This document shows, one piece after another, positions 4,805 through 48,345 of a stretch of DNA of 48,714 nt. A program made the translations under genes and the position numbers. Below the pieces are notes generated by a model that saw only the letters and a program-made list of their open reading frames with translations, did not search any database and was not told the DNA's origin. Origin of the DNA: an uncultured Spirochaetaceae bacterium (GTDB lineage: Bacteria; Spirochaetota; Spirochaetia; Treponematales; Treponemataceae); contig CACYWZ010000014.1 in assembly GCA_902778325.1 (NCBI GenBank), positions 1 through 48,714 of the forward strand. The letters are read 5' to 3'. Position 1 is the first letter of the stretch; each line of letters opens with the position of its first letter.

Positions 4805-4846
4805 GCTTTTTTTATGACATTTTGCGAGGGGCGCCAAATTTGGGCG

Positions 4847-5080
4847 ATGTCAAAATGACACGCCTCGCTTTTCGCAAAAGCATTGAATGTCATAATGACA
4901 CGACGCGACTTTTTGAAAAATCAGCTCGTGTCATGGTGACGCGGCACGTTTTTGGTGCAAATCATATCGTGTCATGGTGACGCGAGCCGTTTTTTGCCCA
5001 AGACATCGAATGTCAAAATGACACGCCTTGTTTTTCGCAAAAGTCAGCAAATGTCATTTTGACACGACGATTTTTTGATT
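4847..5080. repeat. Tandem array A: six 41-bp units with TGTCA-NNN-TGACA cores
   Basis: Cores start at 4848, 4888, 4929, 4970, 5011 and 5052, giving steps of 40, 41, 41, 41 and 41. Each core is a small inverted repeat (TGTCA, three bases, TGACA or TGACG). It is followed by a CG-rich stretch and a T5-T6 run, and then in most units by an A-rich stretch (GCAAAA in two of them). A degenerate extra core lies near 4815. The array fills the gap between the convergent MATE and FtsH-like genes. Neither gene has another visible terminator, so the hairpin-plus-T units may terminate from both sides. Confidence 0.85.
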
Positions 5081-5105
5081 TAATTACAATAACTAAAAAT
5101 GTTTT

Positions 5106-6272
5106 TTATTTGCCAAACGCTCTTTTTACGTCGTCAAGCGTGATTTCGTCGCGGGAGGCTTGGCGGGCGAGTAGGGCGGCGCGGTTCAAGGCGGATTCGA
5201 TTTCGGCGCAGCTTGCGCCTTTGAAAAAGTCTGCGATTTCTTTTATCGAAAGTCCTGCAGCGAGTTTCTTGCCTTTGGTGTACATCGCGACAAGCTCCTC
5301 TCGCGCCTTTTCATCAGGAGAAGGAACGCGGAACTTTGCGTCAAAGCGTCCTGGGCGGATAAGAGCGGGGTCGAGGGCTGAAACGCTGTTCGTTGCCGCA
5401 ATCACCAAAACGCCCTTTGTTTCCTCAAAGCCGTCAAGTTCGTTGAGCAATGCTGTAACAATGCGCGTGTTTTCGGTTTCAATAGCGCTTCCTGAATAGT
5501 TTCGCCTTGTGCCGATGCCGTCGAACTCGTCGATAAAGACGATACACGGCGCTTTTGCTCTTGCTTTTCGGAACAGGAGCTTTACTTTCATCGGACCTAT
5601 CGCCATGAACATGCTTTCAAAGTCAGTCGCTTTTGCCGCAATAAAGTTCACTTTCGCTTCTCCCGCAAGAGCTTTCGCAAATAGCGTTTTGCCGTTGCCG
5701 GGGTCTCCTTCGAGCAAAATCCCTTTCGGCATGCGAATGCCGCGAGAAGCGTATTCTTTTTGGTGAAGCATTATGTCCATGACTTGCGCCATATCGCGCT
5801 TGAGGCTCTCCATTCCCACAACGTCGCTGAACTTCACTCCAGTCTTGTGAACGACGCGGAAAGTGTTTGGCGAAATGAACTTTCTGAAAGCGATGAAAAT
5901 CATTCCAAAAAAGAAGATGTAGAAAATGCTGTCGAGAATGAGCGAAACTATTTCGCCAGAGTCTTTTGTTTCTTCGATTTTCACGCCGTGCAAAAGCATT
6001 GTTTCTCGCAATGTAGGCGAATTGGGGTTTTCTGTGTACAAAGGATATTCTTTTGCCCACGAAGCATATACGTCGGTGCGGAAATAAATGCGCTCTCCGT
6101 CGATTTTGGCTTTTTCCACGGTGTCTTGAAGCACATCATTGTAAAACTCTTTGTAAGGCTTGTATTCTGCTTTTTCTTTTGAAAAATCCCAAGCAAAGTA
6201 CGCGCCTAAAGATATAAGAGCGATTGAGAAAATAATGAGAATACGTTTGTTTAAGCGAAAAGCCATTTTCAA
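5106..6272 (-). CDS. FtsH-like membrane AAA+ ATPase lacking the protease domain
   Basis: This 388-residue protein is arranged like the first half of FtsH: a transmembrane helix (about 10-27), an external segment, a second transmembrane helix (about 108-129), then one AAA+ module. Walker A is GDPGNGKT (189-196; the usual second residue P is D), Walker B is CIVFIDEFD (243-251), and the second region of homology has RPGRFD arginine fingers (306-311). The chain stops after the AAA lid (DEITLDDVKRAFGK). The zinc peptidase domain with HEXXH is absent, with no frameshift or remnant behind it. It probably remodels or extracts membrane proteins without cutting them, or feeds a separate protease. It overlaps the upstream transporter gene by ATGA (6269-6272), so the two are translated together. 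Confidence 0.85.
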   Translation of the reverse strand: MKMAFRLNKRILIIFSIALISLGAYFAWDFSKEKAEYKPYKEFYNDVLQDTVEKAKIDGERIYFRTDVYASWAKEYPLYTENPNSPTLRETMLLHGVKIEETKDSGEIVSLILDSIFYIFFFGMIFIAFRKFISPNTFRVVHKTGVKFSDVVGMESLKRDMAQVMDIMLHQKEYASRGIRMPKGILLEGDPGNGKTLFAKALAGEAKVNFIAAKATDFESMFMAIGPMKVKLLFRKARAKAPCIVFIDEFDGIGTRRNYSGSAIETENTRIVTALLNELDGFEETKGVLVIAATNSVSALDPALIRPGRFDAKFRVPSPDEKAREELVAMYTKGKKLAAGLSIKEIADFFKGASCAEIESALNRAALLARQASRDEITLDDVKRAFGK

Positions 6273-7936
6273 GAAGCCTGTGGAGCGGTTGTGTTTTTCG
6301 CAAGCTCACCCGCAATGCCGAAACAACGGTCGCCGATTTTCTCGATTTGACGCACAAGGTCGATATACAAAAGCTCTGCTTTGACGTTCGCTCCTGTTTC
6401 GAGTCGGCTTCTTGCGATTTTCTTGAGTCTGCGCCGCTCGTCATCGATTTGCCGTTCGAGGTCTTCGGCGTAGGCAAGCTGGTTCTTGTTGAGGTGCTTT
6501 CCGATGTTCTTGTAGACAAAATAGAGGAACTCGCGCGCAAGCTCAACGTAAGGCATAAGCCGCTCAAGGTCGTCTGAAGAGAATTGCATTTTCTTGTCGA
6601 CAGACTTTTTGATGAGCATACCGATGTTCAAACACTCGTCAGCCATGCTTTCAAGCTCCTGCACAATCTGCATCATAATCGATACAGTGTTCTGTGACTG
6701 CTCGCTGATGTCCAATCGTGAACAGCGCACAAGATAATTCGTGAGTTGCTCGTTCATCTGGTCTGTGAAATCCTCTTGTGAAAGGAGTTCTTTGTAATGC
6801 TCTTTTTCAAAACTCTCGTCGCGGTGCTTGAATCCGCTCTGAACAGCGTCGAACATCTGAACAACAATGTCGGACATAAGAGCGATTTCTTTTTGTGCGC
6901 TGAAAACGAGGGCTTCTGGTGTTTCGAGAGCCGTCTTTTCGTTGAACTCAAGATGATAGACCATTGAGTCTTCTGCCTCGTCGTCCTTGATGATTTTGCG
7001 GGCAAGATTTGCAATCTGATTTACGAACGGGATAAAGATAATCGTTCCGATAACTTTGAACGACGTGTGAAGCATAGCGATGTGATAAACGATATTGTCC
7101 TGAACTGTGCCAGGAATAAGGAAATCAACGAAGCGCAAATAAGGCTTGAAGAAAATAAGAGTGATAACCACTGTTGCGACGTTGAACATAACGTGAATGA
7201 GAGCGGTTCTCTTTGCGTTTGCCTTTGAATGAGAAGCCGCCATAATAGAATCGACTGTTGAGCCGATTTCGCTACCGATAACCATAGCCGCGCCGAATTC
7301 CCACATTGCAGGATTTTTAGCAGCCGCCGTGATAACGATAGCTGTCATCGCAGAAGACGAGTGAATCAAAGCCGTGATTGCGATTCCTGTAAGCACTGCC
7401 AGCATCGTGGAAATCGCGCCGTAGCCCTGTGCTTTTGCCACAAACTCATCTATGCCAGAAAGATTTTTGAACAAATCAGAAAGCCAGCCCAAACCGATGA
7501 ACAATATAGCAAAGCCGAGAATTGCCATTCCCACGCCTTCGAGCTTCCACTTTTTCTGCGTCAGAAACACATATCCCACAGCGATAATCGGGATAGCATA
7601 ATCTTTAATCTCAAAGCCGTTGCCAAAAAAAGCGACAATCCACGCTGTTATCGTTGTTCCGATGTTTGCACCAAAGATAACGCCGACAGACTGCTCAAGA
7701 GTCAAAAGACCTGCGTTTACAAAAGAAACAAGCATAACCGTCGTTGCGCCCGATGACTGAATAATCATCGTGAGAACCATACCTGTGAAAAGACCAACGA
7801 AGCGGTTTCCTGTTACGACAGCAAGCGCGGACTGCAACTTTTGTCCAGCGTTTTTCTGAATGCCGTCGCTCATCATTTTCATACCGTAGAGCAAAAAACA
7901 AAGGCTACCAGCAAGGGTGAATAATGTAGAAATCAT
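6269..7936 (-). CDS. Na+/phosphate cotransporter family protein with PhoU-like domain
   Basis: This is a 555-residue protein. The membrane half has the two inverted signature repeats of the NptA/PF02690 family: QSSGATT with GANIGTT in the first, and HSSSAMT with GSEIGST in the second. The cytoplasmic C-terminal part (from about 340) is helical and PhoU-like, as in bacterial YjbB-type proteins. It likely moves phosphate across the inner membrane with Na+. GGAG precedes the ATG by a few bases. The FtsH-like ATPase gene follows with a four-base overlap, which suggests that the ATPase acts on, or is regulated with, this transporter. Confidence 0.88.
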   Translation of the reverse strand: MISTLFTLAGSLCFLLYGMKMMSDGIQKNAGQKLQSALAVVTGNRFVGLFTGMVLTMIIQSSGATTVMLVSFVNAGLLTLEQSVGVIFGANIGTTITAWIVAFFGNGFEIKDYAIPIIAVGYVFLTQKKWKLEGVGMAILGFAILFIGLGWLSDLFKNLSGIDEFVAKAQGYGAISTMLAVLTGIAITALIHSSSAMTAIVITAAAKNPAMWEFGAAMVIGSEIGSTVDSIMAASHSKANAKRTALIHVMFNVATVVITLIFFKPYLRFVDFLIPGTVQDNIVYHIAMLHTSFKVIGTIIFIPFVNQIANLARKIIKDDEAEDSMVYHLEFNEKTALETPEALVFSAQKEIALMSDIVVQMFDAVQSGFKHRDESFEKEHYKELLSQEDFTDQMNEQLTNYLVRCSRLDISEQSQNTVSIMMQIVQELESMADECLNIGMLIKKSVDKKMQFSSDDLERLMPYVELAREFLYFVYKNIGKHLNKNQLAYAEDLERQIDDERRRLKKIARSRLETGANVKAELLYIDLVRQIEKIGDRCFGIAGELAKNTTAPQAS

Positions 7937-8014
7937 GATAGCTCCAAGTATACAAAAAAAGTTGTCTTTATGAAAACCCTTTTTAATGTAATTGGCTTAT
8001 TTTTGTTTTTATGA

Positions 8015-8027
8015 TACATTTTTCGCT
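8015..8027 (+). promoter_or_regulatory. -10 element placing transcription start at the ATG of the next gene
   Basis: TTGGCT (7992-7997), 17 bases, then TACATT (8015-8020) puts the transcription start at about 8027. The ATG is at 8028 and no Shine-Dalgarno is seen. The promoter elements are imperfect, so this is a candidate only. Confidence 0.35.
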
Positions 8028-8651
8028 ATGGAAGCATTTTTATTGACAGCAATCCCGCTTTTCAGCGCGGGCTACATATCAAAAAAGCGCACGGAAGAGC
8101 GCCTTGCCGCGTACTTTTCAGGGCTTGTAATCTCATCGCTTTTGTTCGTCGTGAGATTTTTCGTTTTTTTCTGTGAACAGCCACATTCCGCGTCGTTCCT
8201 AAAGAATTTTGTCGGCTTGTACTTGTTCCACACGCTTTTGCCAGTCGTTTTGTGCAGTGCGCTCTATTTCTTTTTTGCCCGCTTTTTCAAAAAAGGAGCC
8301 GCGCAAGAAAAAGCAGAGCAGTTCTTTTCTTTGATGCTCGGCTTTTACACAATTTTCCTTCCGTATAACGTTTTTGGCGAGAATAAGCTCTTCTCAGCGT
8401 TTGACCTTTTCGCTCTTCCAATCCTTTTTATAAGCCTCTTCTTTGCATTGCGGACGCTTCTAAAAAACGCGTCTGCAATAACACTCGCCCTCGCTTTCCT
8501 CCTTTCAGCCTTCCCCTCACTTTGTGAAACAATTGCATATTACTCTCCGTTCATGGGCTGTGTTTTGAGCGCTGTCTTCGTGCTTTTGACCGTCGCGCTT
8601 CTCTTCGTTCCGTTCTCAAAATTAGGCGCAAAAAAACAAATCGCACAGTAA
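8028..8651 (+). CDS. Small integral membrane protein of unknown function
   Basis: The open frame can begin with TTG at 7992, but the ATG at 8028 (MEAFLLTAIPL) gives a normal membrane-protein start and fits a leaderless mRNA. The 207-residue product is almost entirely hydrophobic, with about six or seven transmembrane segments separated by short Lys/Arg-rich loops (KKRTEERL, FKKGAAQEKAEQ). It ends KLGAKKQIAQ. I do not recognise a family. It is divergent from the Na/Pi transporter gene and is followed by a MITE-like repeat at 8668. Confidence 0.6.
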   Translation: MEAFLLTAIPLFSAGYISKKRTEERLAAYFSGLVISSLLFVVRFFVFFCEQPHSASFLKNFVGLYLFHTLLPVVLCSALYFFFARFFKKGAAQEKAEQFFSLMLGFYTIFLPYNVFGENKLFSAFDLFALPILFISLFFALRTLLKNASAITLALAFLLSAFPSLCETIAYYSPFMGCVLSAVFVLLTVALLFVPFSKLGAKKQIAQ

Positions 8652-8667
8652 AACATTTTTTGAAAAA

Positions 8668-8782
8668 GGGCTGTCCCAAAAGTATTGTCATGCTGAACTT
8701 GTTTTCAGCATCTACGCTGCATCTGTAGAGATTCCGAAACGAGTTCGGAATGACACTGAGCAACGAACTTATCGGACAGCCC
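8668..8782. mobile_element. MITE-like repeat, copy 1 (115 bp)
   Basis: The terminal inverted repeats are GGGCTGTCC (8668-8676) and GGACAGCCC (8774-8782), flanked by A- and T-runs. An inner inverted repeat ATTCCGAA/TTCGGAAT lies near 8731-8751. A shorter relative with about 40 identical internal bases lies at 40557-40651. There is no coding capacity; the minus-strand reading frame through it is a by-product. With its T-run it could also act as terminator for the gene ending at 8651. Confidence 0.75.
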
Positions 8783-9059
8783 ATTTTTTTTGTCAAAACT
8801 CGTCGACACACGCGAAATAAGCGCCTCTAGTTCATCTTTCAGTGGCTTGAAAGCCTCGTTCACACGATGTGCATTTAGAAAAAATATTTATAACAAGAAA
8901 ATTCGTAATAAAAACGAAAAAACTTTTGAAACAGCAGAAAAGCCGTTTGGAGAAATTGGAATTTTGTGGTTTTGTGCGATAAATTAAGGTTTTTCGAGCA
9001 AGAAAATCATATTGCCTTTTCTGTCTATCAATGTTTTTCGTTTGTTATCAAAAAATAAG
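8783..9059. other. Intergenic stretch without recognised content
   Basis: AT-rich sequence between the MITE-like element and the promoter of the sugar importer. I see no gene, RNA or repeat in it. Confidence 0.4.
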
Positions 9060-9088
9060 TTGACGGCTAAAAATTTTGGGTTTATTCT
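9060..9088 (+). promoter_or_regulatory. Promoter of the sugar ABC importer operon
   Basis: TTGACG (9060-9065), 17 bases, then TATTCT (9083-9088). The start codon is at 9128 with CGGAGGT just upstream. No operator palindrome is obvious. Confidence 0.6.
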
Positions 9089-9127
9089 AAAAATACAAGG
9101 ACAATATGAATTTCGGAGGTCTTTTTT

Positions 9128-10519
9128 ATGAAAAGATGTTTTAGAGTTGCAGCCGCACTTAGCGCGCTTGCACTTTCAGTTGGCTCATTTACAAGTTGTG
9201 GCGGAAAGAGCGAAAGCGCTTCTTCTGCCGCTGCTCCAAAAGCAGAGGAAAAATCAGAGAAAACGAATGAAATAAAGGCGGACGCTATTTCGACTGTCGG
9301 TCCTGACAGCGGAACGCACTTGGAGTTGTGGACTTTTGTCGACCTTCACAGTCAGCACTATGCGGCAATGCTTGAGCAGTGGAACAAAGAGCATCCTGAC
9401 AAGCAGATTCAGATTACGTTCACGACATATCCTTATGGCGATATGCACAACAAGCTCATTATGGCAAACCAGACTGGAACTGGCGCTCCTGATATTTGCG
9501 ATGTTGAAATCGGTCAGTTCCCGAACTTCACTCTCGGCAATGTTCAGTTTGTTGAGATGGACAAATATATTGAGCCATACAAGGACAATGTTGTTCAGTC
9601 ACGTCTCGACATTTACGGAAAGGACGGAAAGCACTACGGTATTCCGTTCCATGTCGGTGCGACTGTCATGTATTACAACGATGAGCTTTTGTCAAAATAT
9701 GGTATCGATTACAAGACAATCAAGACTTGGGACGACTTTGAAAAGGCGGGCTTGAAGTTGAAAGAGGCTTCAAACGGCGAGGTCATGATGACTGGCGCTG
9801 ACACAGGCGGAACTGACTGGCTTTGGCTTTCAATGGCAGAAAACAAGCAGGATTGGACTGACGCAAACGGCAAGGCAAATGTTTGCATTAACGGCGTTAG
9901 CGATATGATTAAAATGCAGCAGAGATGGGTCAACGAGGGCATCGCGACACCGACTGCCGGCGGACAGATTGATACAGAAGCAGGTTATGCTTGTGTCGGC
10001 GACGGTAAAATCGCAGCGTTCCCGAAGGCGCTCTGGTACATGAGCCGCTTCTTGAACTATATGCCTGAGCAGAGCGGAAAGTGGGCAATCGCTCCTTGTC
10101 CTGTCTACAAAGAGGGACAGCCTCGTTCTGTTGGTATTGGCGGTACTGGTACAGTTGTTTCTTTGCAGTCAAAGCATCAGGAACTTGCCGCAGAGTTCAT
10201 CGTTTATGCAAAACTTTCTCTTGAGGGCGAAAAGCGCATTTGGGAAGTTTTGGGATTTGACCCTGTAAACACTGATATGTGGCAGGACACAAGTCTTACA
10301 CACGACCCTTCAAACAAATATGTTGCATACTTCCGCACAAATCCTTTTGATGTCTTGAACGTTATCAAAGACGAAATTGGCGGTATCAAGTGCGTTCCTA
10401 TTTCTTCAGCAATCAACGAGCAGATTAACCTCAATGTTTTGAACAACTGTCTTGAAAGCGGTGCTGATGTTGATGAGGAGCTTAGTACTGCACAGGGCGA
10501 AATTGACCTTGAGCAATAA
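9128..10519 (+). CDS. Sugar ABC transporter substrate-binding lipoprotein (family 1)
   Basis: This 463-residue protein has a lipobox FTSC, with lipidation expected at Cys24, followed by a Ser/Ala/Lys/Glu linker. The mature domain has the family-1 extracellular solute-binding pattern (LELWTFVDLHSQHY, EQWNKEHPD, NQTGTGAPDICDVEIGQF, GKHYGIPFHVGATVMYYNDEL, WALWYMSRF-like segment near 10030). It should capture an oligosaccharide or sugar at the membrane surface and hand it to the two permeases encoded next. No ATPase gene is in the operon, so a shared MsmK-type ATPase elsewhere is likely. The sugar cannot be deduced. Confidence 0.9.
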   Translation: MKRCFRVAAALSALALSVGSFTSCGGKSESASSAAAPKAEEKSEKTNEIKADAISTVGPDSGTHLELWTFVDLHSQHYAAMLEQWNKEHPDKQIQITFTTYPYGDMHNKLIMANQTGTGAPDICDVEIGQFPNFTLGNVQFVEMDKYIEPYKDNVVQSRLDIYGKDGKHYGIPFHVGATVMYYNDELLSKYGIDYKTIKTWDDFEKAGLKLKEASNGEVMMTGADTGGTDWLWLSMAENKQDWTDANGKANVCINGVSDMIKMQQRWVNEGIATPTAGGQIDTEAGYACVGDGKIAAFPKALWYMSRFLNYMPEQSGKWAIAPCPVYKEGQPRSVGIGGTGTVVSLQSKHQELAAEFIVYAKLSLEGEKRIWEVLGFDPVNTDMWQDTSLTHDPSNKYVAYFRTNPFDVLNVIKDEIGGIKCVPISSAINEQINLNVLNNCLESGADVDEELSTAQGEIDLEQ

Positions 10520-10561
10520 CCTGTAAAAACGGTTTTTGCAAAAGAAAAATCGCCTATAAAA

Positions 10562-10600
10562 CTTTCCGCGCCCTTTTCTTTTTGGACAGAGCGCGGAAAG
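10562..10600 (+). promoter_or_regulatory. Perfect 10-bp stem-loop between binding-protein and permease genes
   Basis: CTTTCCGCGC (10562-10571) pairs completely with GCGCGGAAAG (10591-10600) around a 19-base loop. No T-run follows, so it is not a standard terminator. Its place between a binding-protein gene and its permeases suggests an mRNA-stabilising or partial-termination element that raises binding protein over permease, as in malE-malF. Confidence 0.7.
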
Positions 10601-10616
10601 ATTTCAAAAGGGGGAA

Positions 10617-12422: not shown

Positions 12423-12454
12423 TGGCTATAATTTAGCACTTCTTCATAACTCTT

Positions 12455-12500
12455 TCCCGCGATTGACACAGTTTGTGCTTTTCGCGGGATTCTTTTTTTT
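12455..12500 (+). terminator. Terminator of the sugar importer operon
   Basis: TCCCGCG (12455-12461) pairs with CGCGGGA (12483-12489), followed by TTC and T8. It is the standard intrinsic terminator form. Confidence 0.85.
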
Positions 12501-12517
12501 GTGCTGACAGAGCAAAA

Positions 12518-12727
12518 GCAGATGATTATGAAGTAAAAGCATGTGATTTTGGAATAAAAGCAATTGATTATGAAACAAAAGCAAGTGATTATGAAGCAAA
12601 AGCATGTGATTATGAAGCAAAAGAAAATGATTATGAAACAAAAGAAAGTGATTATGAAACAAAAGTAAATGATTATGAAACAAAAGAAAGTGATTTTAGA
12701 GAAAAAGAAAATGATTATGGAGAAAAA
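12518..12727. repeat. Tandem array B: ten exact 21-bp units
   Basis: Ten units of exactly 21 bp start at 12518, 12539, 12560 and so on to 12707. The consensus is G-N-A-N-N-T, then GATTATGAAACAAAA. Because 21 is a multiple of three, the array is open in a plus-strand frame (heptads such as ACDYEAK and ENDYETK), which would start at a GTG inside the terminator at 12473. There is no ribosome-binding site and most changes between units alter residues, so I treat it as non-coding. It lies between the operon terminator and the fba terminator. Confidence 0.85.
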
Positions 12728-12774
12728 TCAAGATATGGACGTTAATTCTTTTTTCAAAGATGTGATTAATCAAT

Positions 12775-12823
12775 AAAAAACGCCCTGCTACTTTGCTTTT
12801 GGCATTTCGCAAGGGCGTTTTTT
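12775..12823. terminator. Bidirectional terminator, mainly for fba
   Basis: CGCCCT (12781-12786) pairs with AGGGCG (12812-12817). The stem is flanked by A6 on the left and T6 on the right, so it works on either strand. It lies just beyond the minus-strand stop of fba. Confidence 0.75.
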
Positions 12824-12848
12824 ATGCTTTAACTAGCAAATCTTAATC

Positions 12849-13847: not shown

Positions 13848-13878
13848 TGCTGTCCCCTTAGATAAGTAATTATTGATA

Positions 13879-13907: not shown

Positions 13908-13940
13908 GAGCACATAGACGATAAAAAATCTCAAAAGAGT

Positions 13941-18483: not shown

Positions 18484-18486
18484 TGG

Positions 18487-33718: not shown

Positions 33719-33739
33719 CTGTGAAAACTCTTCCCCAAA

Positions 33740-33928
33740 GTCGGACGGAAGTCATCCCAAGTCGGACGAACTCCATCCCAAGTCGGACGAACTCCATCCC
33801 AAGTCGGACGGACTTCATCCCAAGTCGGACGGACTTCATCCCAAGTCGGACGAGCTTCATCCCAAGTCGGACGGACTTCATCCCAAGTCGGACGAGCTTC
33901 ATCCCAAGTCGGACAGAGTTTGTCCGAT
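33740..33928. repeat. Tandem array C: nine 21-bp units
   Basis: Units start with GTCGGAC every 21 bp from 33740 (33740, 33761 and so on to 33908). The rest of each unit is close to GAACTCCATCCCAA or GGACTTCATCCCAA. The ninth unit differs: it ends TTTGTCCGAT, so it folds back on its own GTCGGACA. The array starts 21 bases after the tatD-type stop. All minus-strand frames through it read repeated VRLGM heptads and are not genes. Confidence 0.9.
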
Positions 33929-38596: not shown

Positions 38597-38820
38597 CACA
38601 TTAAACAATGTGGGCTTGAAAAATCCAAAGACGCTCTCGCATTAAACAATGTGAGGGCGTTTTTTCTTTTTGTCCCTCTCGCATTAAACAATGTGAGTCA
38701 AAAAAATCAAAAGTCGACCTCACATTAAATAATGTGACCTCGTTTTACTCATAAGTCGAGCCCACATTAAACAATGTGAGATGAGAAAAATCAAAAGACA
38801 GCGCCACATTAAATAATGTG
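38597..38820. repeat. Tandem array D: six 41-42 bp units with CACATT-AAAC-AATGTG cores
   Basis: The 16-base core CACATTAAACAATGTG (or CGCATT/AAAT variants) starts at 38597, 38638, 38680, 38721, 38763 and 38805, giving steps of 41, 42, 41, 42 and 42. The intervening 25-26 bases are less conserved but share an AAAAATCAAAAG-type stretch. The array begins 11 bases after the tyrS stop. A short remnant like the MITE tail (CTCAGAATGACAGCGC) follows at 38833. Confidence 0.9.
38631..38666 (+). terminator. Terminator built on the second unit of array D
   Basis: ACGCTCTCGCATT pairs with AATGTGAGGGCGT (13 pairs including G-U) around AAAC, followed by T6-C-T5. The repeat core forms the top of the stem and the neighbouring spacer bases form its base. 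This is the probable end of the tyrS transcript. Confidence 0.75.
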
Positions 38821-40527: not shown

Positions 40528-40556
40528 CGTTTTGTGTAGGCTATGGTATAAAAAAA

Positions 40557-40651
40557 GGGCTGTCCCAAAAGTATTGTCATGTTGCATCTAGTGTAGAGAT
40601 TCCGAAACGAGTTCGGAATGACACTGAGCAACGAACTTATTGGACAGCTCC
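40557..40651. mobile_element. MITE-like repeat, copy 2 (95 bp)
   Basis: GGGCTGTCC (40557-40565) and GGACAGCTCC (40642-40651) form the ends, with A- and T-runs outside. It shares about 40 identical internal bases with the copy at 8668-8782 and lacks some 20 bases of that copy. It lies between convergent genes and probably doubles as a terminator. Confidence 0.75.
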
Positions 40652-40671
40652 TTTTTGTTTGTGGTCAAGCG

Positions 40672-42858
40672 TTAATAAATGCTTCTGATTAGAGAGATAA
40701 GTGACGAGCCGCGGTTTTTCACGTCTGGAACTAAATCTGCTTTGACAGATTTTGAATCTGCGGCGTTTTCTCCTGCGACTTTCGCACCCTCTGCGTTTGC
40801 TGCTGGCACTGTGTCTTGCAATGCGGCTGTATTGTCGTTCACAACGACGTGAGCGCCTGAAAGCGTAAGCGATGACTTTGCTTTTTCGTCCGCATCTTCT
40901 GAAAGCGAAAGAAGCACAACTTCGTCTCCGATATTCAAGCGGTCATAAAAGCCCTTTCGCTTGAACTCGCCTTCAGAAATCTCTTCGCTTGTTGTTGTAA
41001 TAGTGAGATTTCCAAGAACGTCCTCATCGCGATAAATAAGCCCTCGCCCTGTGTCAGCAGTTCTGACTTTTCCCTCTTTCAAAACAACGAACGTCGAGCC
41101 GTTCATAATGCCTTCTGAGCGTCCAAGGTCAACAAGAAGTGTGTCACTGCTTCTGTTCAGGACTTTTCCTCGAACTGGCAAGATATCGAGAATTGACTGC
41201 CTGAACTTTCTCAGCGCAGAAGCCATCTTGTCGTTTCCTGTTCGATAGATATTGATTTTTGTGACCTCAGAGCCTGTTCGTGCTGAATAAACAACAGCGT
41301 CAATCGTAAACGTTCTGTCGTCTTCGTCGACTTTGAGCATTGCAAAATAATCGCGTCCTTCTTTTCGTGCAAGTGAATATGCTTCACCAAAGCCGTTAAC
41401 ACTTGCGCTTGCGGCTTCAACAACAGTTGTCGCAACACCAGAGAAAATGTCGGCAGCCATTTCAGCTGTTACTCGCTCTGCGTCAGGGTGCAGGAAATGT
41501 GCTGTTGACGGTGTGTAATAAAGAGCAATTCTCCAGCGGATTTTGTTCAAATAGAATGGCTGAACACTCCATTTTGCAGCTATTGAGTTTTTCATAAGTG
41601 ACTCAAGCGCTTCCATTGTGTCTGCGTTCTTTGTCAGTTCGTATTTTTGCTTGTCAGTAAGTTTTTCGTCTTCTGTTGTGTTCTTTTTCCTCTGTTCTTC
41701 GATGAACTTCAACTGAGAAAGATACATTTCATTGAAGCCGTCACGACTTAGCATTCGTGCAAATGCTGTTCTCGCCATTGAGTTCAATGGGTCGATTCTG
41801 AGCGCTCTTTGATACTCAAAGCGTGATTGAGGACCATCAAAGCGTCTTTCGTATTCTTTTGCACGACTGATGTGATAAAGTGCCCAGTTAGGTCTTCTTG
41901 TGTCTTCAATATCAACAGTTGATGTTATCAAAAGTTCAAGGGCTGCTCTCATCATTTCATCATATGGGTCTGCAATAACACCTTGCTCGAATGTTACAAC
42001 TGCGTCTTCAATATTGCCTTGCTGTCTTTGGCACAATCCTTTCAAATACCACGCTGATGCGCATTTTTTGTCACGTCCTATTCTGTAATCGCAAATATCG
42101 ATTGCTTCGCTATAGCGTTTTGATTCATATAAAATAGAAGCGAGGAGTTCGTATGCGTGGTCATAATCAGCCCGTATTTGTACTGCTGCTCGTGCCTGTC
42201 GCTCCGCATCGCTTAACTCTCCGTGTCGGGCAAGTATGTATGACGCCAAATAGTGAACAACTGCATCTCCTGAATGGACGCGAAGCGCTGTGTTGATATA
42301 TGAGCGTGCTGTGTCCCAATTGCCTTTCTCCATGCTGACAAGAGCAAGTGACAATAGCGCATTTCTGTTTGTTCTTTGTCGGTCAAGCGCTTGAAGATAA
42401 TATTTTTCTGCACCTGAAAGTGAGCCTGAGAAGAGGTCTAACTCAGCAAGACCAAAACGCGCTTCTACATCGTTTGGATACGAACTTAGGATTTTGTTGA
42501 AAATATCTCGTGCTTCATCAAATCTCGATAAAGCGATAAAAATCATTCCTTTGAGATTTTGGACGCTAGAATAATTGCGGGAATATTTTTCTGCTGACTC
42601 AAGATAAGAAAGCGCTAAATCATATTCGCCTAATTGATATGTGCAGAAAGAAAGATTAAACCAAGCATCTCCGTATGCACTGTTTTTTTGCAATGCCTCT
42701 TGATAGGCTTCAACGGCTCTGTACCAATTTTCATTGCATTGTGCAGAATAACCGTCGTTGTAATAATCTTGTGCGCTTTTTGCTGCTGAAAAAGCAGGTG
42801 TTCCAATGGCAAGGGCAAAAGCGAGAAAGCACCAAGCACTCTTTTTATATAAACCCAT
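40672..42858 (-). CDS. Exported TPR-repeat protein
   Basis: This 728-residue protein has a signal peptide ending PAFSAAK. About eleven tetratricopeptide repeats fill residues 25-370 (NWYRAVEAYQEALQKN, EYDLALSYLESAEKYS, RFDEARDIFNKILSSYPND, and so on). The region about 420-560 is of unknown fold. Near 575-660 a beta domain (GKVLNRSSDTLLVDLGRSEGIMNGSTFVVLKEG) resembles the C-terminal domain of FlgT and related periplasmic proteins. A periplasmic scaffold or flagellar/envelope assembly role is possible but not shown. GGGGGA precedes the ATG. The start overlaps the stop of the upstream CBS-protein gene, so the two are co-translated. Confidence 0.8.
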   Translation of the reverse strand: MGLYKKSAWCFLAFALAIGTPAFSAAKSAQDYYNDGYSAQCNENWYRAVEAYQEALQKNSAYGDAWFNLSFCTYQLGEYDLALSYLESAEKYSRNYSSVQNLKGMIFIALSRFDEARDIFNKILSSYPNDVEARFGLAELDLFSGSLSGAEKYYLQALDRQRTNRNALLSLALVSMEKGNWDTARSYINTALRVHSGDAVVHYLASYILARHGELSDAERQARAAVQIRADYDHAYELLASILYESKRYSEAIDICDYRIGRDKKCASAWYLKGLCQRQQGNIEDAVVTFEQGVIADPYDEMMRAALELLITSTVDIEDTRRPNWALYHISRAKEYERRFDGPQSRFEYQRALRIDPLNSMARTAFARMLSRDGFNEMYLSQLKFIEEQRKKNTTEDEKLTDKQKYELTKNADTMEALESLMKNSIAAKWSVQPFYLNKIRWRIALYYTPSTAHFLHPDAERVTAEMAADIFSGVATTVVEAASASVNGFGEAYSLARKEGRDYFAMLKVDEDDRTFTIDAVVYSARTGSEVTKINIYRTGNDKMASALRKFRQSILDILPVRGKVLNRSSDTLLVDLGRSEGIMNGSTFVVLKEGKVRTADTGRGLIYRDEDVLGNLTITTTSEEISEGEFKRKGFYDRLNIGDEVVLLSLSEDADEKAKSSLTLSGAHVVVNDNTAALQDTVPAANAEGAKVAGENAADSKSVKADLVPDVKNRGSSLISLIRSIY

Positions 42859-43682
42859 TATTTTCCCCCGTCATTATTATCGGCAGAATTATGTCGGATA
42901 ACCTTTATTACGTTTATGCGGTGTCCTTCCATATCTTGCACGATAAAATCAAAGTCTTTCCAAGAAACTTTTTCGAATCTTACAGGTATTTTTCCAAACA
43001 AATCGAACACGAAACCTCCAAGTGTGTCAAACTCCTCAACTGGAAGGTTTGCATTTAGCGTTTCGTTAAAATCATCGAGGTCAATACGAGCCTCACAAAG
43101 CCACATATTTTCGCCTGCATCTTCTATGGTTGGCTTTTCGTTGTCGAACTCGTCTTGAATATCACCAACAATTTCCTCGATGATGTCTTCCATACAGACG
43201 ATTCCGCTTACACCTCCATATTCATCGATTGCAATAGCAATATGAAGATGATTGCGCTTGAACTCACGCAAAAGGCTATCAATGCGTTTTGTTTCGGGAA
43301 TAAAATACGCTTTTCTGATTATTTTGTTAAAATCAACACTTTCGTGTTTTGAAAACGCATTTATCAAATCTTTTACATAAAGAACACCGACAACGTTATC
43401 AACTGACTCGCTGTAAACAGGAAAACGGCTGTGTCCACTTTCCGCGATTTTTACCAGCAATTCGTCCTGTGATGTATCAATCGAAAGAAAATCAACGTCA
43501 ATTCTCGGAATCATAACCTCTTTCACTGTTGTTTGAGAAAGGTCTTCGATACCGCGTATCATATCTTTCTTGTCTTTGTTTAGTGCAGCTTCAAGATTAG
43601 AACTGTCAGAAGAAGCCGAAGAATCATCGGACACTGATTTTGTGTCATCTTCTTTGCTCTTCCCGAAATTAAATAACCCCAT
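42858..43682 (-). CDS. CBS-domain protein of the HlyC/CorC family
   Basis: This soluble 274-residue protein has an acidic Ser-rich N-terminus, a CBS pair (TVKEVMIPRIDVDFLSID, then HSRFPVYSESVDNVVGVLYVKDLINAF, then HLHIAIAIDEYGGVSGIVCMEDIIEEIVGDIQDEFD), and a C-terminal transporter-associated CorC_HlyC domain (DTLGGFVFDLFGKIPV). There is no membrane DUF21 part, so it is the CorC type linked to Mg2+/Co2+ efflux or ybeY function. GAGGAAG precedes the ATG. The order phoH, HD protein, ybeY, CBS protein is a widely conserved cluster. Confidence 0.88.
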   Translation of the reverse strand: MGLFNFGKSKEDDTKSVSDDSSASSDSSNLEAALNKDKKDMIRGIEDLSQTTVKEVMIPRIDVDFLSIDTSQDELLVKIAESGHSRFPVYSESVDNVVGVLYVKDLINAFSKHESVDFNKIIRKAYFIPETKRIDSLLREFKRNHLHIAIAIDEYGGVSGIVCMEDIIEEIVGDIQDEFDNEKPTIEDAGENMWLCEARIDLDDFNETLNANLPVEEFDTLGGFVFDLFGKIPVRFEKVSWKDFDFIVQDMEGHRINVIKVIRHNSADNNDGGK

Positions 43683-43741
43683 TTATCTTCCTCAATTTAT
43701 AAAAAATATGTCATTACTTGAAAAACAATGTAAAGACATAC

Positions 43742-44221
43742 TTATATTATTTTATATTCGGCAAATTTCTTCAAAGTCTTTTCTTGTAAAGCAAGCATTT
43801 CGTCTTTTGGTTCAATTCCACTTTCAACGTGTTCGTCTCCGTGGTCATAGCCGTTAAGGTGCAAAAGCCCGTGAAGCAAAAGACGTTTTAATTCATCGTT
43901 TTCGCTAACACCAAAATATTCTGCATTTTTTGGAAGAGTATCAAGGCTTATGATAATATCGCCTGCAGAAAACCACTTCTCTCCGTCTTCGTCTGTGTAT
44001 TCTTCTCCGTTTTCAAACGAAAGCACATCTGTTGGATTATCAATTTCTCGATATTGTTTGTTGAGCGATTGGATAAAAGGGTCTGAGCAAAACATAATAC
44101 TTACTTCTTCATCATCATATCCTATTTCGTTGATGACAAGATTCATATACGGCTCAACGCGTGATATCCATTCAGGTTCTTGAAGTCCTTCTTCCATTGA
44201 AATAAAAAATCTATTAGCCAT
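43742..44221 (-). CDS. ybeY: Endoribonuclease YbeY (16S rRNA maturation)
   Basis: YbeY is a zinc endoribonuclease that matures the 16S rRNA 3' end and takes part in ribosome quality control. The start is set at ATG 44221 (MANRFFISMEEGLQEPEW); the longer frame to 44359 runs inside the upstream gene. The 159-residue protein has SLNKQYREIDNPTDVLSFE and the zinc motif HGLLHLNGYDHGDEH. Its start overlaps the stop of the HD-protein gene by eight bases. Confidence 0.94.
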   Translation of the reverse strand: MANRFFISMEEGLQEPEWISRVEPYMNLVINEIGYDDEEVSIMFCSDPFIQSLNKQYREIDNPTDVLSFENGEEYTDEDGEKWFSAGDIIISLDTLPKNAEYFGVSENDELKRLLLHGLLHLNGYDHGDEHVESGIEPKDEMLALQEKTLKKFAEYKII

Positions 44222-45935
44222 TTTTTCCCTCGTCTTCGTTATTTTGAGCGCCTGAAACATTCTGCGCTGGTTGTGAAATTGGAGCGCTTGTGTCTTCTCC
44301 GTCTTTTTGTCCTGGATATTTAATTCTTGAATGATAGTATCCCGCAAGAATTTGGACAAAAGAATCTTTTATCTTTTTCAAATCTTTGAATGTTAGCGGA
44401 CAGTTGTCTAGTTGTCTTTCAGCATTTACTTTTTTGTCAATTAAACTCTGTATAAAACTGTCCAAGCGCGAAACAGAAGGTTTGTCAAGCGATTTGCAAG
44501 CCGCTTCTACAGTATCTGCGAGCATAACGATACCGCTTTCTTTTGTTGAAGGAAGATTTCCGTAATATGAATAATCTTCTTCGCGGACATTTGGGTCTTC
44601 TTTCTTTGCTTTTTCATAAAACCATCTCACAACAGAGTTTCCGTGATGCTCTGAAATGATTTTTATAACAGCCGCTGGCAAATGTTGCTCTGTTGCTTTT
44701 TCTACGCTCAATTTCACATGCGTTCTGATTATCGTAAGCGAAAGCGAAGGATTTAAATCATCGTGAGGGTTTCCGTCTTGCTGGTTTTCAGTAAAATAAT
44801 CGCTGTGATCCATCTTGCCAATATCGTGATAATAGGCGGCAACACGCGCAAGAAGTGCATTTGCGCCGACTTGGCGGCAAGCATTTTCCGCAAGTTGCGC
44901 GACCATAATGCTGTGCTGGTACGTGCCGCTTGCTGTGACGCAAAGATTTTTCAAGAGCGGGGTATTTGTATCGCTCAAATCCATCAAGCGGAAAACGCTT
45001 GCTGTATTCAAAAGCGATTCAAGAGGCGTGATGAAGCCAAGAGCGAGGATGCCTGAAATGAAGCCGTTCAGAGCAACACCGATAAGTACAAAAAAAGCAT
45101 CAGAGAAATTGTCATTGTAAATGATTTTCAGCACGGACATAAAGACCATATTGAGAAAACTCAAAATCAACGAAGAGAAAACCATATCGGTTCTTTTCTC
45201 GATTTTTCGCACAATTCTTGATGAGGCAATTCCTGAAGAGAGCGTAAACAAACAAGGAACAATTTGAAACCCTGCAGCTGCATAAACAATCATTGCTGAA
45301 ACAATTGAAAAATAAACTGCGGAAGTCTGTCCATATAAAATAGCAATCAGAAACACACAGAAAGATGATGGAATCAGAATCGGAATTGTGTAAATTGATG
45401 TGAAAAAGTGAAGTTTGCCGCCAAAAACTGTGCAAGCATAAATAAAGACAAGGAAAACTCCTTGCAAAACGAGTTCAGACATTTCAACATCGCGTTTTAA
45501 AAGAACAGGGGTAAACAAAAAGAAGTAGAACACAAATATGAGCAACAGCAAAAGCTCTCTGTCTGCAAACGCTCTGTAATCAACATAAGAAGGTGCTTCT
45601 GCAAGTTTTTTGAGCTTGCTGTATTCCTCGGCGGTAATCTTAAATCCTTTGTGGATTATCCGCTCTCCTTCCTGAATGCTAACAGGATTTGCAATATCTG
45701 GCTCAAGTGTTGTTCTTGCAAATATATTGCGGTCTGCAATAGCGCCCTCTTCAAAATCTTCAAGCCTAAATGATTCGACTGTTTCAGAAGTTGAAGTGTC
45801 TGCAAAGTTTAGTGCTGAAACTGCTGCGAAAAAAACAATAAATGCAATCAAAAGCACTTTATGCTCTTTCACAAATCTTTCGCTAACTTCCAAAAGATTT
45901 TGAAAAATACTCTTTTTACTGTCCTGCATACTCAT
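44214..45935 (-). CDS. 7TM-HD phosphohydrolase (PgpH type)
   Basis: This 573-residue membrane protein has an N-terminal helix (about 28-45), an outer segment of about 80 residues, seven transmembrane helices (about 128-300), and a cytoplasmic HD domain (SGTYQHSIMVAQLAENA, ARVAAYYHDIGKMDHSDYF, IISEHHGNSVVRWFY, GIVMLADTVEAACKSLDKPS). Relatives such as Listeria PgpH degrade cyclic di-AMP, so this may control that messenger. The tail is Gln/Glu-rich. It overlaps phoH upstream by 20 bases and ybeY downstream by eight. Confidence 0.9.
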   Translation of the reverse strand: MSMQDSKKSIFQNLLEVSERFVKEHKVLLIAFIVFFAAVSALNFADTSTSETVESFRLEDFEEGAIADRNIFARTTLEPDIANPVSIQEGERIIHKGFKITAEEYSKLKKLAEAPSYVDYRAFADRELLLLLIFVFYFFLFTPVLLKRDVEMSELVLQGVFLVFIYACTVFGGKLHFFTSIYTIPILIPSSFCVFLIAILYGQTSAVYFSIVSAMIVYAAAGFQIVPCLFTLSSGIASSRIVRKIEKRTDMVFSSLILSFLNMVFMSVLKIIYNDNFSDAFFVLIGVALNGFISGILALGFITPLESLLNTASVFRLMDLSDTNTPLLKNLCVTASGTYQHSIMVAQLAENACRQVGANALLARVAAYYHDIGKMDHSDYFTENQQDGNPHDDLNPSLSLTIIRTHVKLSVEKATEQHLPAAVIKIISEHHGNSVVRWFYEKAKKEDPNVREEDYSYYGNLPSTKESGIVMLADTVEAACKSLDKPSVSRLDSFIQSLIDKKVNAERQLDNCPLTFKDLKKIKDSFVQILAGYYHSRIKYPGQKDGEDTSAPISQPAQNVSGAQNNEDEGKNG

Positions 45936-46869
45936 ACGCCTGTACTATTTTCTTCACCAAAGGATTTCTCACCACGTCATCACTTGTGAGTCTCATTATC
46001 TTTATTTCGGATATTTTTGAGAGTAACTCCATAGCCTGAATCAATCCTGATGGAACTCTTGACGGCAAATCTACTTGCGTGACATCACCGGTGACGAACA
46101 CTTTTGAATCTTCGCCCATGCGAGTGAGAAACATTTTCATCTGTTCCCGCGTTGTGTTTTGCGCCTCGTCCAAAATTATGACGCTGTTGTTTATTGTTCG
46201 GCCTCGCATATACGCAAGAGGCGCAATCTCGATAACGCCAGATTCCGACAATCGCTTTACAGTCTCGCGAGGCAAAAGCGTATTCATCGCATCATAAAGA
46301 GGACGCAGATAAGGATTTATCTTGTCCTCCAAATCGCCTGGAAGAAAGCCCAAATTTTCACCAGCCTCGACAACAGGGCGAGTCAAAACAATGCCGTTTT
46401 TTTTGTGCGTCAAAACTTCCCAAAGCGCCTCTGCCATCGCAAGATACGTTTTTCCGCTTCCAGCAGGACCTTCTGCAAAAACGATATCATAAGAACGAAG
46501 AGCGCTCATTAACGCTGCTTGATTTGCTGTTTTGGGAAGAATTTTCTTCAGACTGCCAGGAATATTTATCGAAACGGCTGAAAGAGAAGTGCCTTTCAAG
46601 TTCAAAATAGAATGGATAATATCGCCGTCGTTGCCGTCTGCAATTTCGTCTGAAAGACGGTCGATTATAAAACGGAACTTATCAGTGATTTCCTTGTCAT
46701 CATTTTCAATAGAAATCTCATTGCCTGTGCAAAAAACACTGACGCCCAAATGCTCTTCAATGAGTTTCAAGTTGCTGTCATTTGTGCCGCAAATGCTCTT
46801 TAATACATCTGCTTCAGGCACTACAATCGTATAAGCCACAAAAACCTTCGCTTTATTATTGTTTAACAT
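45916..46869 (-). CDS. phoH: PhoH-family ATPase/RNA-binding protein
   Basis: The TTG-initiated frame extends to 46896, but the ATG at 46869 (MLNNNKAKVFVAYTIVVPEAD) is the likely start, giving 317 residues. An N-terminal KH-like part is followed by the PhoH core: TANQAALMSALRSYDIVFAEG, Walker A GPAGSGKTYLAM, GIVLTRPVVEAGENLGFLPGD, PLAYMRGRTINNSVIILDEAQN (Walker B) and FVTGDVTQVDLP. PhoH proteins of this type act with YbeY in RNA metabolism. It heads the phoH, HD, ybeY block and is divergent from neuB. Confidence 0.92.
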   Translation of the reverse strand: MLNNNKAKVFVAYTIVVPEADVLKSICGTNDSNLKLIEEHLGVSVFCTGNEISIENDDKEITDKFRFIIDRLSDEIADGNDGDIIHSILNLKGTSLSAVSINIPGSLKKILPKTANQAALMSALRSYDIVFAEGPAGSGKTYLAMAEALWEVLTHKKNGIVLTRPVVEAGENLGFLPGDLEDKINPYLRPLYDAMNTLLPRETVKRLSESGVIEIAPLAYMRGRTINNSVIILDEAQNTTREQMKMFLTRMGEDSKVFVTGDVTQVDLPSRVPSGLIQAMELLSKISEIKIMRLTSDDVVRNPLVKKIVQAYEYAGQ

Positions 46870-46889
46870 TGTAATGTCAAAGACATCGT

Positions 46890-46919
46890 TTGACAAGGCT
46901 TATGCTTTGCTAATATACT
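46890..46919 (+). promoter_or_regulatory. neuB promoter, near-leaderless
   Basis: TTGACA (46890-46895), 18 bases, then TATACT (46914-46919). The ATG is at 46929, with no Shine-Dalgarno sequence, so the leader would be about three bases. Confidence 0.5.
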
Positions 46920-46928
46920 TTTTGCATT

Positions 46929-48050
46929 ATGATTATAGCAGAGATTGGAACGGCTCATGGTTCGTCGCTTGAAAAAGCGAAAGAGTTGATTGACGGCGCT
47001 GCAAAAGCAGGTGCGGACGCTGTCAAGTTTCAGTGGGTTTACGCTGATGAAATATTGCATCAGAACACAGGCTTTGTTTTGCTTCCCGGCGGCAAGATTC
47101 CGCTTTACGACAGATTCAGGCAGCTGGAAATGAGCGCGGATTTTTTTGCATCCGCCCGCGATTACGCTCATTCAAAAAATATGCTGTTTGCTTGCTCCCC
47201 GTTTGGTGTGAGAAGCCTTAAGGAACTCATTGAAATAAAGCCCGATATTATAAAAATTGCTTCTCCTGAATTAAATCATTTTCCAATGCTTGAGGCTCTC
47301 AAAAGCGCAATCGACAATGGACTTGAGACCCCAGTCGTGATTTCTTCGGGAGTCTCAAAACTTGGCGACATCGAAAAAGCGCTCGATGTTCTCGATTTTG
47401 ATTCTGAGAGCGAAAGTGCGAAGCAATTCACTCTTCTTCATTGCATCACAAGTTATCCGGCTCCTGAAAGCGAATACAATGTCCGCCTCGTGAAGACGCT
47501 CAAAGATATTTTTGGCATAAACACTGGCATCAGCGACCACAGCCTTGACCCTGTTCTTGTTCCAGTGCTGTCGACCGTGATGGGCGGGACTTGCATCGAA
47601 AAGCACATCACCTTGAGCAAGAAAACAGACGGTCTTGACGACCCTGTAGCGCTTGAAATCGATGAGTTTTCGAATATGGTTTACAGCGTCAATCAGACAA
47701 AAGCCATTTTGAAGCGCTATGGCGAGGAAGAAGGCGCGAGAATCGCGATAAAGCAGATGCAAGATTTGTATGGCGAGGAGAAAGTCCGAAGTGTTCTTGG
47801 CTCTGGCGTGAAGCGACTTGCGAAAAGCGAGAGCGCAAATTACGGCAGAACGAACCGCTCGCTCCATTTTTTGCACGATATGAAAAAAGGCGAAATCATA
47901 AAAGAGAGCGACATCGCAGTTTTGCGGACTGAAAAAGTTCTGACGCCCGGGCTTTCTCCTGAATATCTTTCGACCGTCGTCGGCTGTGTTTTGACAAGCG
48001 ATGTTTCTAGCGGAAGCGGCGTTGAGTGGGGAAACTTGCTGTCGAAATGA
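46929..48050 (+). CDS. neuB: N-acylneuraminate (sialic-type acid) synthase
   Basis: NeuB-family enzymes condense phosphoenolpyruvate with a 6-carbon amino sugar to make sialic, legionaminic or pseudaminic acids for surface glycans. The 373-residue protein has AEIGTAHGSSLEKAKELIDGA, AGADAVKFQWVYADE, FACSPFGVRSLKEL, PDIIKIASPELNHFP, VISSGVSKLGDIEKAL, LLHCITSYPAPESEYN, TGISDHSLDP, and TCIEKHITLSKKTDGLDDP. A C-terminal SAF (antifreeze-like) domain follows (MKKGEIIKESDIAVLRTEKVLTPGL). Which acid is made cannot be told. No other pathway gene is in the window. Array E follows 17 bases after its stop. Confidence 0.92.
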   Translation: MIIAEIGTAHGSSLEKAKELIDGAAKAGADAVKFQWVYADEILHQNTGFVLLPGGKIPLYDRFRQLEMSADFFASARDYAHSKNMLFACSPFGVRSLKELIEIKPDIIKIASPELNHFPMLEALKSAIDNGLETPVVISSGVSKLGDIEKALDVLDFDSESESAKQFTLLHCITSYPAPESEYNVRLVKTLKDIFGINTGISDHSLDPVLVPVLSTVMGGTCIEKHITLSKKTDGLDDPVALEIDEFSNMVYSVNQTKAILKRYGEEEGARIAIKQMQDLYGEEKVRSVLGSGVKRLAKSESANYGRTNRSLHFLHDMKKGEIIKESDIAVLRTEKVLTPGLSPEYLSTVVGCVLTSDVSSGSGVEWGNLLSK

Positions 48051-48067
48051 CGCTCATCTCCTTTTGC

Positions 48068-48345
48068 GTTGCAGCAGTTCAACGGCCTTAAACAAAATTT
48101 TTTTAGCCGTTGCAGGAGTTCAACGGTGCCAAATTTAAAATTTTTGCGTTTTGCAGCAGTTCAACGGCGTCAAACAAAATTTTTTTAGCTGTTGCAGTAG
48201 TTCAACGACGCCAAATTTAAAATTTTTGTGTTTTGCAGCAGTTCAACGGCCTTAAACAAAATGTTTTTAGCCGTTGCAGGAGTTCAACGGTGCCAGATTC
48301 AAAATTTTTGCGTTTTGCAGTAGTGCAACGGCCTTTTTCGCAAAA
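48068..48345. repeat. Tandem array E: seven 41-bp units in alternating types
   Basis: Units start at 48068, 48109, 48150, 48191, 48232, 48273 and 48314, all exactly 41 bp apart. Each has GTTGCAG-(CAG/GAG/TAG)-TTCAACGG, with GTTG/CAAC as inverted arms (CCGTTG/CAACGG in some units), then an A-rich and T7-type stretch. Odd units carry CTTAAACAAAATTTTTTTAG and even units CCAAATTTAAAATTTTTGCG, so the true period is 82 bp. It fills the gap between neuB and a GNAT gene. Confidence 0.92.

What the first reader, a model, noticed from the sequence alone, without database searches (positions are those of the whole stretch)
4805..48345. Five intergenic arrays with private sequences but a shared 41/42-bp or 21-bp lattice
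Arrays at 4847-5080, 12518-12727, 33740-33928, 38597-38820 and 48068-48345 have unrelated unit sequences. Yet the measured steps are 40-41, 21, 21, 41-42 and exactly 41 bp. Each lies directly 3' of a plus-strand gene (MATE, sugar permease, TatD type, tyrS, neuB). In A, D and E the unit has an inverted-repeat core plus an A/T run; C ends in a hairpin and D contains one. 41-42 bp is about four helical turns and twice 21, which suggests either a protein that binds in phase or a common generating process (slippage or duplication at terminator hairpins). This looks like one class of 3'-end element defined by period and place, not by sequence.
Basis: partly seen in the sequence, partly recalled or inferred. 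Interest (0 to 1): 0.78.

Follow-up and report, generated by a model that had tools for sequence, protein, structure and literature searches.

The report
Genome-wide 41-bp intergenic repeat lattice
This Treponema-like bacterium carries many short, mostly gene-free repeat arrays in unrelated sequences that nearly all share the same 41-42 (or 21) base spacing, as if something in the cell measures DNA length rather than reading its letters.

Summary
The five arrays are real and their shared lattice is genome-wide. In 746 kb of the same genome sampled without regard to arrays, plus the window, 74 of 80 non-coding tandem arrays have period 39-43 or 20-22 bp. Self-repeats at lags 41+42 number about 4,030 per Mb, against 33-137 in relatives. 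Lattice arrays fill about 15% of sampled intergenic DNA.

Two claims need correction. Units are not private: A-D belong to dispersed families. They are not strictly 3'-end elements: 11 of 71 placed arrays lie between divergent genes, though arrays in tandem gaps sit nearer the upstream stop.

Units are enriched in inverted repeats, and 19 families share one AT/GC profile around the dyad. Strand tests give no support for RNA hairpins or terminators. No RAYT- or Tas-type protein was found. No sampled relative shows the lattice, but none is close.

Best reading: a dispersed, satellite-like, DNA-level array class with constrained spacing, most likely a phased protein-binding lattice. Class and period are shown; protein and function are inferred. 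Closest known kinds: non-coding satellite families (Leptospira) and REP/BIME elements.

The parts
4807..5064 (.). Array A: degenerate half-site (4807-4819) then six TGTCANNNTGACR dyads at 4848, 4888, 4929, 4970, 5011, 5052; spacers with T-run/A-run
4926..4985 (+). two array-A units that also match a terminator-like pattern (4926-4944, 4967-4985)
   Evidence: consensus match only
12455..12500 (+). ordinary hairpin plus T-run between the permease gene and array B
   Evidence: read by eye; not listed by the scan
12513..12719 (.). Array B: 21-bp units (CAAAAGCAAGTGATTATGAAA); counted as coding by my gene caller because a 90-aa ORF runs through it
33738..33928 (.). Array C: 21-bp units (AAGTCGGACGGACTTCATCCC), last unit replaced by a hairpin
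33908..33928 (+). hairpin with T-rich tail closing array C
38597..38820 (.). Array D: six CRCATTAAAYAATGTG dyads, steps 41,42,41,42,42
38627..38664 (+). second dyad of array D with its flanks: a terminator-like hairpin
48067..48340 (.). Array E: GTTGCAGNAGTTCAAC dyad units, steps of exactly 41, 82-bp higher-order repeat; core found nowhere else in the genome

Best explanation
The arrays are one genome-wide class of dispersed, mostly non-coding, satellite-like elements, each a few to about a dozen units of about 41.3 bp (or 21 bp), often with inverted-repeat symmetry. SHOWN: the common period over many unrelated sequence components; dispersal of families over several loci; inverted-repeat enrichment; a shared AT/GC profile phased to the dyad; no RNA-strand signature. 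INFERRED: they act at the DNA level, as sites four (or two) helical turns apart on one face of the duplex, for an architectural (nucleoid- or insulator-type) protein or protein family that reads symmetry, spacing and AT/GC alternation more than exact letters. INFERRED: spacing is kept by selection while letters drift, and arrays reach new intergenic sites as blocks by recombination or an unidentified mobiliser.
For: Period: 74 of 80 non-coding arrays at 39-43 or 20-22 bp, none at 24-39 in a 12-50 search; per-array mean step 41.31 +/- 0.55 (72 arrays, tracking limited to +/-2 bp of the detected period). Many sequences: 34 components, 17 with two or more arrays. Symmetry: perfect 6-bp-arm inverted repeats 0.61 per unit vs 0.11 after column permutation and 0.22 in array-free intergenic DNA, with centre spacings clustered at 40-42 and 20-21. 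Shared architecture: AT(0-8 bp) minus AT(9-12 bp) 0.234 vs null 0.001 +/- 0.046 over 19 families, 0 of 2000 rotations reaching it. Spacing outlives sequence: family A spacers 48% identical within and between arrays (shuffled 26%), yet 39 of 42 steps are 40 or 41. DNA not RNA: G.T 55 vs A.C 60 on the transcript strand in tandem gaps; terminators not enriched in sense; arrays also between divergent genes.
Against: No binding protein identified. Many different palindromes argue against one sequence-specific protein. 33 of 80 lattice arrays show no significant inverted-repeat excess, and the whole-unit symmetry test was significant in only 19 of 69. Arm covariation is not above slid controls. Three non-coding arrays have period 23, which is not a whole number of helical turns. 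In five of eleven families units within an array are more alike than between arrays, a sign of local copying.
Confidence: 0.42

Rival explanations
1. Selfish or neutral satellites: founder arrays were copied round the genome (recombination, gene conversion or an unknown mobiliser) and diverged into families, keeping their period only because in-register exchange preserves unit length. No function.
For: Families dispersed over several loci; each family has its own step (40/41, 41, 41/42, 42, 42/43) kept between loci; higher-order dimers such as E's 82 bp; five of eleven families more alike within than between arrays; not seen in sampled relatives.
Against: Does not by itself explain why unrelated families share 41-42/21 bp and one AT/GC phasing, nor steps held in family A while spacers diverged. 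Common descent of all families, beyond recognition, could rescue it.
Confidence: 0.33
2. RNA-level elements: tandem transcript hairpins or terminators at gene 3' ends.
For: Terminator-like units in A, C and D; bias towards upstream stops in tandem gaps; by eye, some family CTACGA arrays end in a strong hairpin.
Against: No G.T excess on the transcript strand; terminator-like hits 8 sense vs 14 antisense in 42 tandem-gap arrays vs 33 vs 17 in 150 array-free tandem gaps; 11 of 71 arrays between divergent genes; no Rfam match in the window besides a tRNA.
Confidence: 0.1
3. Independent slippage or duplication at terminator hairpins generates each array locally.
For: Period of 21/42 could reflect a copying footprint; some arrays are internally homogeneous.
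Against: Families recur at many loci; family A units are as diverged within as between arrays, as are six of eleven further families within 0.05; no sense-terminator enrichment.
Confidence: 0.06
4. REP/BIME elements mobilised by a RAYT (Y1 transposase).
For: Intergenic, palindromic, multi-copy, species-restricted; BIMEs hold regularly spaced palindromes in alternating orientation (PMC2817692, abstract seen).
Against: No Y1_Tnp (PF01797) match in the own genome, while the same search rings in 5 of 14 control genomes; in 72 occurrences of six family palindromes 64 are inside arrays, 8 are singles.
Confidence: 0.04

Closest known systems
Non-coding transposed satellite families of Leptospira interrogans and Methanocella conradii (Subirana & Messeguer 2019, PMC6749651; parts 1-3 of 5 read)
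   Same: Species-restricted families of non-coding tandem repeats scattered through one genome; Leptospira has three families of one length (46 bp), besides 37 and 69.
   Different: Here roughly 100 arrays per Mb (bacterial maximum in their table 23 per Mb, other detection rules), many unrelated families on one 41-42/21 lattice, inverted-repeat enrichment and common AT phasing. They do not report such a lattice in the parts I read.
REP/BIME elements with RAYT transposases (PMC2817692 abstract; PMC3733652 passages)
   Same: Intergenic palindromic repeats, sometimes in regular alternating clusters, species-specific.
   Different: No Y1 transposase found, many unrelated palindromes, almost always in arrays, fixed period across families.
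Borg tandem repeats (PMC9879509, passages)
   Same: Pervasive tandem arrays restricted to particular genomes, in part intergenic.
   Different: Borg units are perfect, locus-unique and described as recently formed; here units are diverged, dispersed and share one period.
TAACTGA direct repeats of Beggiatoaceae (PMC4679880, abstract)
   Same: Many (169) intergenic repeat sets in one genome, proposed protein-binding sites.
   Different: One sequence-defined heptamer, mostly just upstream of start codons.
CRISPR and TIGR arrays (definitions recalled)
   Same: Regularly spaced repeats with partly variable spacers.
   Different: Spacers follow a family consensus, many dispersed loci, no Nop/Tas protein found; cas genes were not searched.

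Membership tests
Dispersed non-coding satellite families | tandem units of 10-200 nt with near-constant length | tested here: met
   mean step 41.31 +/- 0.55 over 72 arrays; their rule of at least four repeats was not applied by me, and some arrays have only three units
Dispersed non-coding satellite families | same family at several loci of one species | tested here: met
   17 of 34 components with two or more arrays; A and D patterns
REP/BIME | Y1 (RAYT) transposase in the genome | tested here: not met
   PF01797: no match in own genome; controls ring in 5 of 14
REP/BIME | GTAG or CGTC tag at the palindrome foot | tested here: inconclusive
   no common tag seen by eye in the consensus list; no systematic test
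TIGR arrays | Tas protein with Nop domain | tested here: not met
   PF01798: no match; controls ring in 4 of 14
CRISPR arrays | conserved repeats with unique spacers, next to cas genes | tested here: inconclusive
   spacers share a consensus, so the unique-spacer feature is not met; cas genes not searched
Intrinsic terminators / RNA hairpins | sense-strand bias of hairpin plus T-run and of G.U pairs | tested here: not met
Helically phased protein-binding arrays | sites on one helical face (whole numbers of turns) | tested here: inconclusive
   41.3 and 21 bp are near four and two turns; 23-bp arrays (3 of 80) are not
Helically phased protein-binding arrays | a protein that binds the array | not testable with these tools
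   no binding data
Borg-type tandem repeats | perfect units, unique to each locus | tested here: not met
   unit identity to consensus 0.71-0.92; families shared between loci

The most novel reading that the evidence does not exclude
A bacterial chromosome carries a length-defined, nearly letter-free intergenic code: hundreds of arrays from dozens of unrelated families, all held to a two- or four-turn dyad lattice, read by an architectural protein (or protein family) as a satellite-based chromatin. This would be a chromosomal element class defined by geometry, not by sequence.
Probability: 0.25. Interest if true: 0.9.

Novelty: new variant of a known kind. Interest (0 to 1): 0.72.

Why it matters
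Bacterial repeat families are normally defined by sequence. Here about 15% of sampled intergenic DNA is occupied by arrays that share a spacing across unrelated sequences. That makes an open question testable: what holds satellite periods near whole helical turns, a bound protein or the copying mechanism? One genome offers dozens to hundreds of natural replicates. Leptospira, another spirochaete, has several 46-bp families (PMC6749651), so spirochaetes may be a good place to look for a satellite-forming or satellite-binding machinery.

Tried and rejected
Private sequences: rejected for A-D. Strict 3'-end element: rejected (11 of 71 divergent). RNA hairpins and terminators: not supported. RAYT/REP and TIGR-Tas: no protein found. 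Loss of SbcD tolerating palindromes: SbcD is present in the own genome (SbcC not searched). Arm covariation as proof of selected structure: 27 double changes vs 26 and 26 at shifts of one column, so no excess, although single families look suggestive by eye (AATT family, L052). The whole-unit dyad test was weak (19 of 69 at p<=0.05), partly because my first consensus builder mis-phased arrays; the raw inverted-repeat count is the figure used. Coding repeats: 8 of 88 arrays fell in called ORFs, six of them lattice arrays, window B among these; 41 is not a multiple of 3. Viral contigs: 26 contigs match the A lattice pattern; two of them, L282 and L284, carry 42-bp arrays unlike family A (ORFs not checked), and three, L283, L286 and L296, share one short 41-bp palindrome array; patterns for two other families gave 0. 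No genome closer than about 82% TyrS identity over the full protein was found (88-89% over part), so empty sites could not be compared. Ten literature searches listed no paper on a period-defined intergenic array class; subscription papers and preprints are not held.

Limits: gene calls come from my own codon-usage ORF caller; array detection needs exact 9-mer recurrences, so old arrays are missed; components are single-linkage and the two largest (12 and 9 arrays) may join unrelated units; components were built only from arrays with period 20-23 or 39-43.

Full report
OBSERVATION. TRF and direct reading confirm all five arrays. Unit tracking gives steps 40/41 (A), 21 (B), 21 with one 22 at the left edge (C), 41/42 (D) and exactly 41 (E). 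Twenty Markov copies of the window hold no array. The window is a whole contig of a 3.35-Mb, 173-contig genome. The best full-length TyrS matches among named genomes are Treponema at about 80-82% identity.

GENOME-WIDE SURVEY. Three were withheld wholly or in part, leaving 746 kb; the window was added. In the first 380 kb, 9-mer recurrences outside long ORFs peak at 41 and 42 and their multiples. Over 746 kb the rates at lags 41 and 42 are 2,164 and 1,866 per Mb against a background near 30. In relatives they are 11 and 40 (80 named loci, 1.256 Mb), 10 and 127 (unnamed, 0.597 Mb), and 3 and 30 (nearest unnamed, 0.297 Mb). Array calling over periods 12-50 finds 88 arrays, 80 non-coding; 74 of the 80 have period 39-43 or 20-22 (41: 42 arrays, 42: 23, 21: 5, 40: 3, 43: 1) and six do not (23: 3, 48: 2, 15: 1). 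The window supplies 5 of the 88. Six lattice arrays fell in called ORFs, window B among them, and two coding arrays have other periods. Lattice arrays cover 14.9% of intergenic bases. Leaving out the window, 75 lattice arrays in 746 kb is about 100 per Mb, or roughly 340 in the genome (extrapolation). Over 72 tracked arrays the mean step is 41.31 +/- 0.55 bp. Of 37 stretches without large withheld parts, 35 hold at least one lattice array.

RELATIVES, RESULTS AGAINST INCLUDED. With a 12-70-bp search, relatives gave 18 arrays, 16 (own row excluded), 4 and 5: 43 in about 2.5 Mb. Three are at 40-43 bp (G021 40, G003 42, G184 42, with 6-9 supporting pairs each) and one at 21 (L239, 7 pairs). The own sample gave 52 in 380 kb, 34 of them at 40-43. 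The D lattice pattern occurs in 1 of 201 genomes searched in the genus and the A lattice pattern in 1 of 39 relatives searched, the own genome both times. So I see the class only in this species, but no close sister is held, and relatives were sampled, not searched whole, for unknown families.

NOT PRIVATE. Cores A and D recur at several places of the genome with 40-42-bp steps, while their reversed control patterns give 0. Consensus units of 83 arrays fall into 34 components, 17 with two or more arrays; 32 of 34 have period 40-43 or 21, two have 23 (only arrays of period 20-23 or 39-43 were entered). Of eight family palindromes tested, six had hits, 64 of 72 inside arrays and none in called genes.

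ANATOMY. Perfect 6-bp-arm inverted repeats occur 0.61 times per unit vs 0.11 after column permutation; array-free intergenic DNA has 0.22. 47 of 80 lattice arrays are individually significant and 33 are not; centre spacings cluster at 40-42 and 20-21. Over 19 families (36 arrays) AT content is high at the dyad and drops at 9-12 bp, 0.234 vs null 0.001 +/- 0.046. In family A the 28-bp spacer has a roughly symmetric consensus (C1 G2, G7, T10-12, A17-19, C22, C27 G28), so the unit has two dyads half a period apart. By eye, all eight A arrays end on the left in a unit whose outer arm is lost (two of them one step beyond the tracked chain), and six of eight end on the right in a unit whose outer arm has one or more mismatches. 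This suggests that the inverted pair TGACA...TGTCA is the complete unit.

SPACING OUTLIVES SEQUENCE. Family A spacers are 48% identical within and between arrays (shuffled 26%), yet 39 of 42 steps are 40 or 41; the other three are 30, 36 and 37. In six of eleven other families within- and between-array identities differ by less than 0.05; in five, within exceeds between by 0.06-0.21. Recent local slippage is therefore not the general cause, though some arrays were amplified locally.

RNA OR DNA. In tandem gaps, mismatched pairs on the transcript strand are 55 G.T and 60 A.C ('+' subset 50 vs 39, '-' subset 5 vs 21). Terminator-like structures in 42 tandem-gap arrays are 8 sense and 14 antisense, against 33 and 17 in 150 array-free tandem gaps. 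Arm covariation is not above slid controls. Lattice arrays lie in 42 tandem, 18 convergent and 11 divergent gaps (gaps of 60 bp or more: 218, 63, 80), with 3 more at stretch edges; in tandem gaps 33 of 42 sit nearer the upstream stop. This fits a DNA element that avoids promoters better than an RNA 3'-end element.

MACHINERY. No Y1 transposase and no Nop/Tas protein were found; SbcD is present. No binding protein was identified.

INTERPRETATION. Best reading: a dispersed, satellite-like class acting at the DNA level with constrained spacing, most simply a phased protein lattice (0.42). Neutral satellites with inherited unit length are the main rival (0.33). The empty period range 24-39, the shared AT phasing and the steps held through spacer divergence favour constraint. 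The missing protein, the arrays without clear symmetry, the 23-bp arrays and the absence from sampled relatives hold confidence down.

LITERATURE. PMC6749651 (parts 1-3 of 5 read) is the closest precedent. PMC9879509 and PMC3733652 were seen as passages, PMC2817692 and PMC4679880 as abstract and outline. CRISPR and TIGR definitions and the 10.5-bp helical turn are recalled.

Noticed in passing
L052:3656-3945, L058:151-296, L048:8487-8699 (own genome): Three arrays have period 23 (with 46); two of them share a family with a GCTATGCACATAGC-like palindrome. Their 46-bp multiple equals the length of three Leptospira satellite families in PMC6749651.
   Followed up: partly
L283:5560-5830, L286:340-610, L296:480-750 (IMG/VR contigs): Three viral contigs share one short array with TGTCA-type palindromes about 41 bp apart; they were selected by a 41-bp pattern, so this may be chance.
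   Followed up: partly
window 4807-4819 and 5052-5064; L027-L035: Family A arrays tend to end in units whose outer half-site is replaced by an A/T run, as if arrays were closed elements.
   Followed up: partly
L052:14365-14794, L223:13771-14085, L228:10745-10961: One family keeps its spacer but shows different palindrome arms at the same place (AATTATGAAATCATAATT vs AATTCCGAAATCGGAATT-like), seen by eye; the pooled covariation test was negative.
   Followed up: partly
own-genome sample, 37 stretches: Lattice arrays per 20 kb have mean 2.0 and variance 1.5 with 2 empty stretches, slightly more even than random; significance not tested.
   Followed up: no
L081:19073, L088:16593, L270:11702 (relatives): Single weak arrays of period 40-42 in three same-genus genomes; coding or not was not checked.
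   Followed up: no
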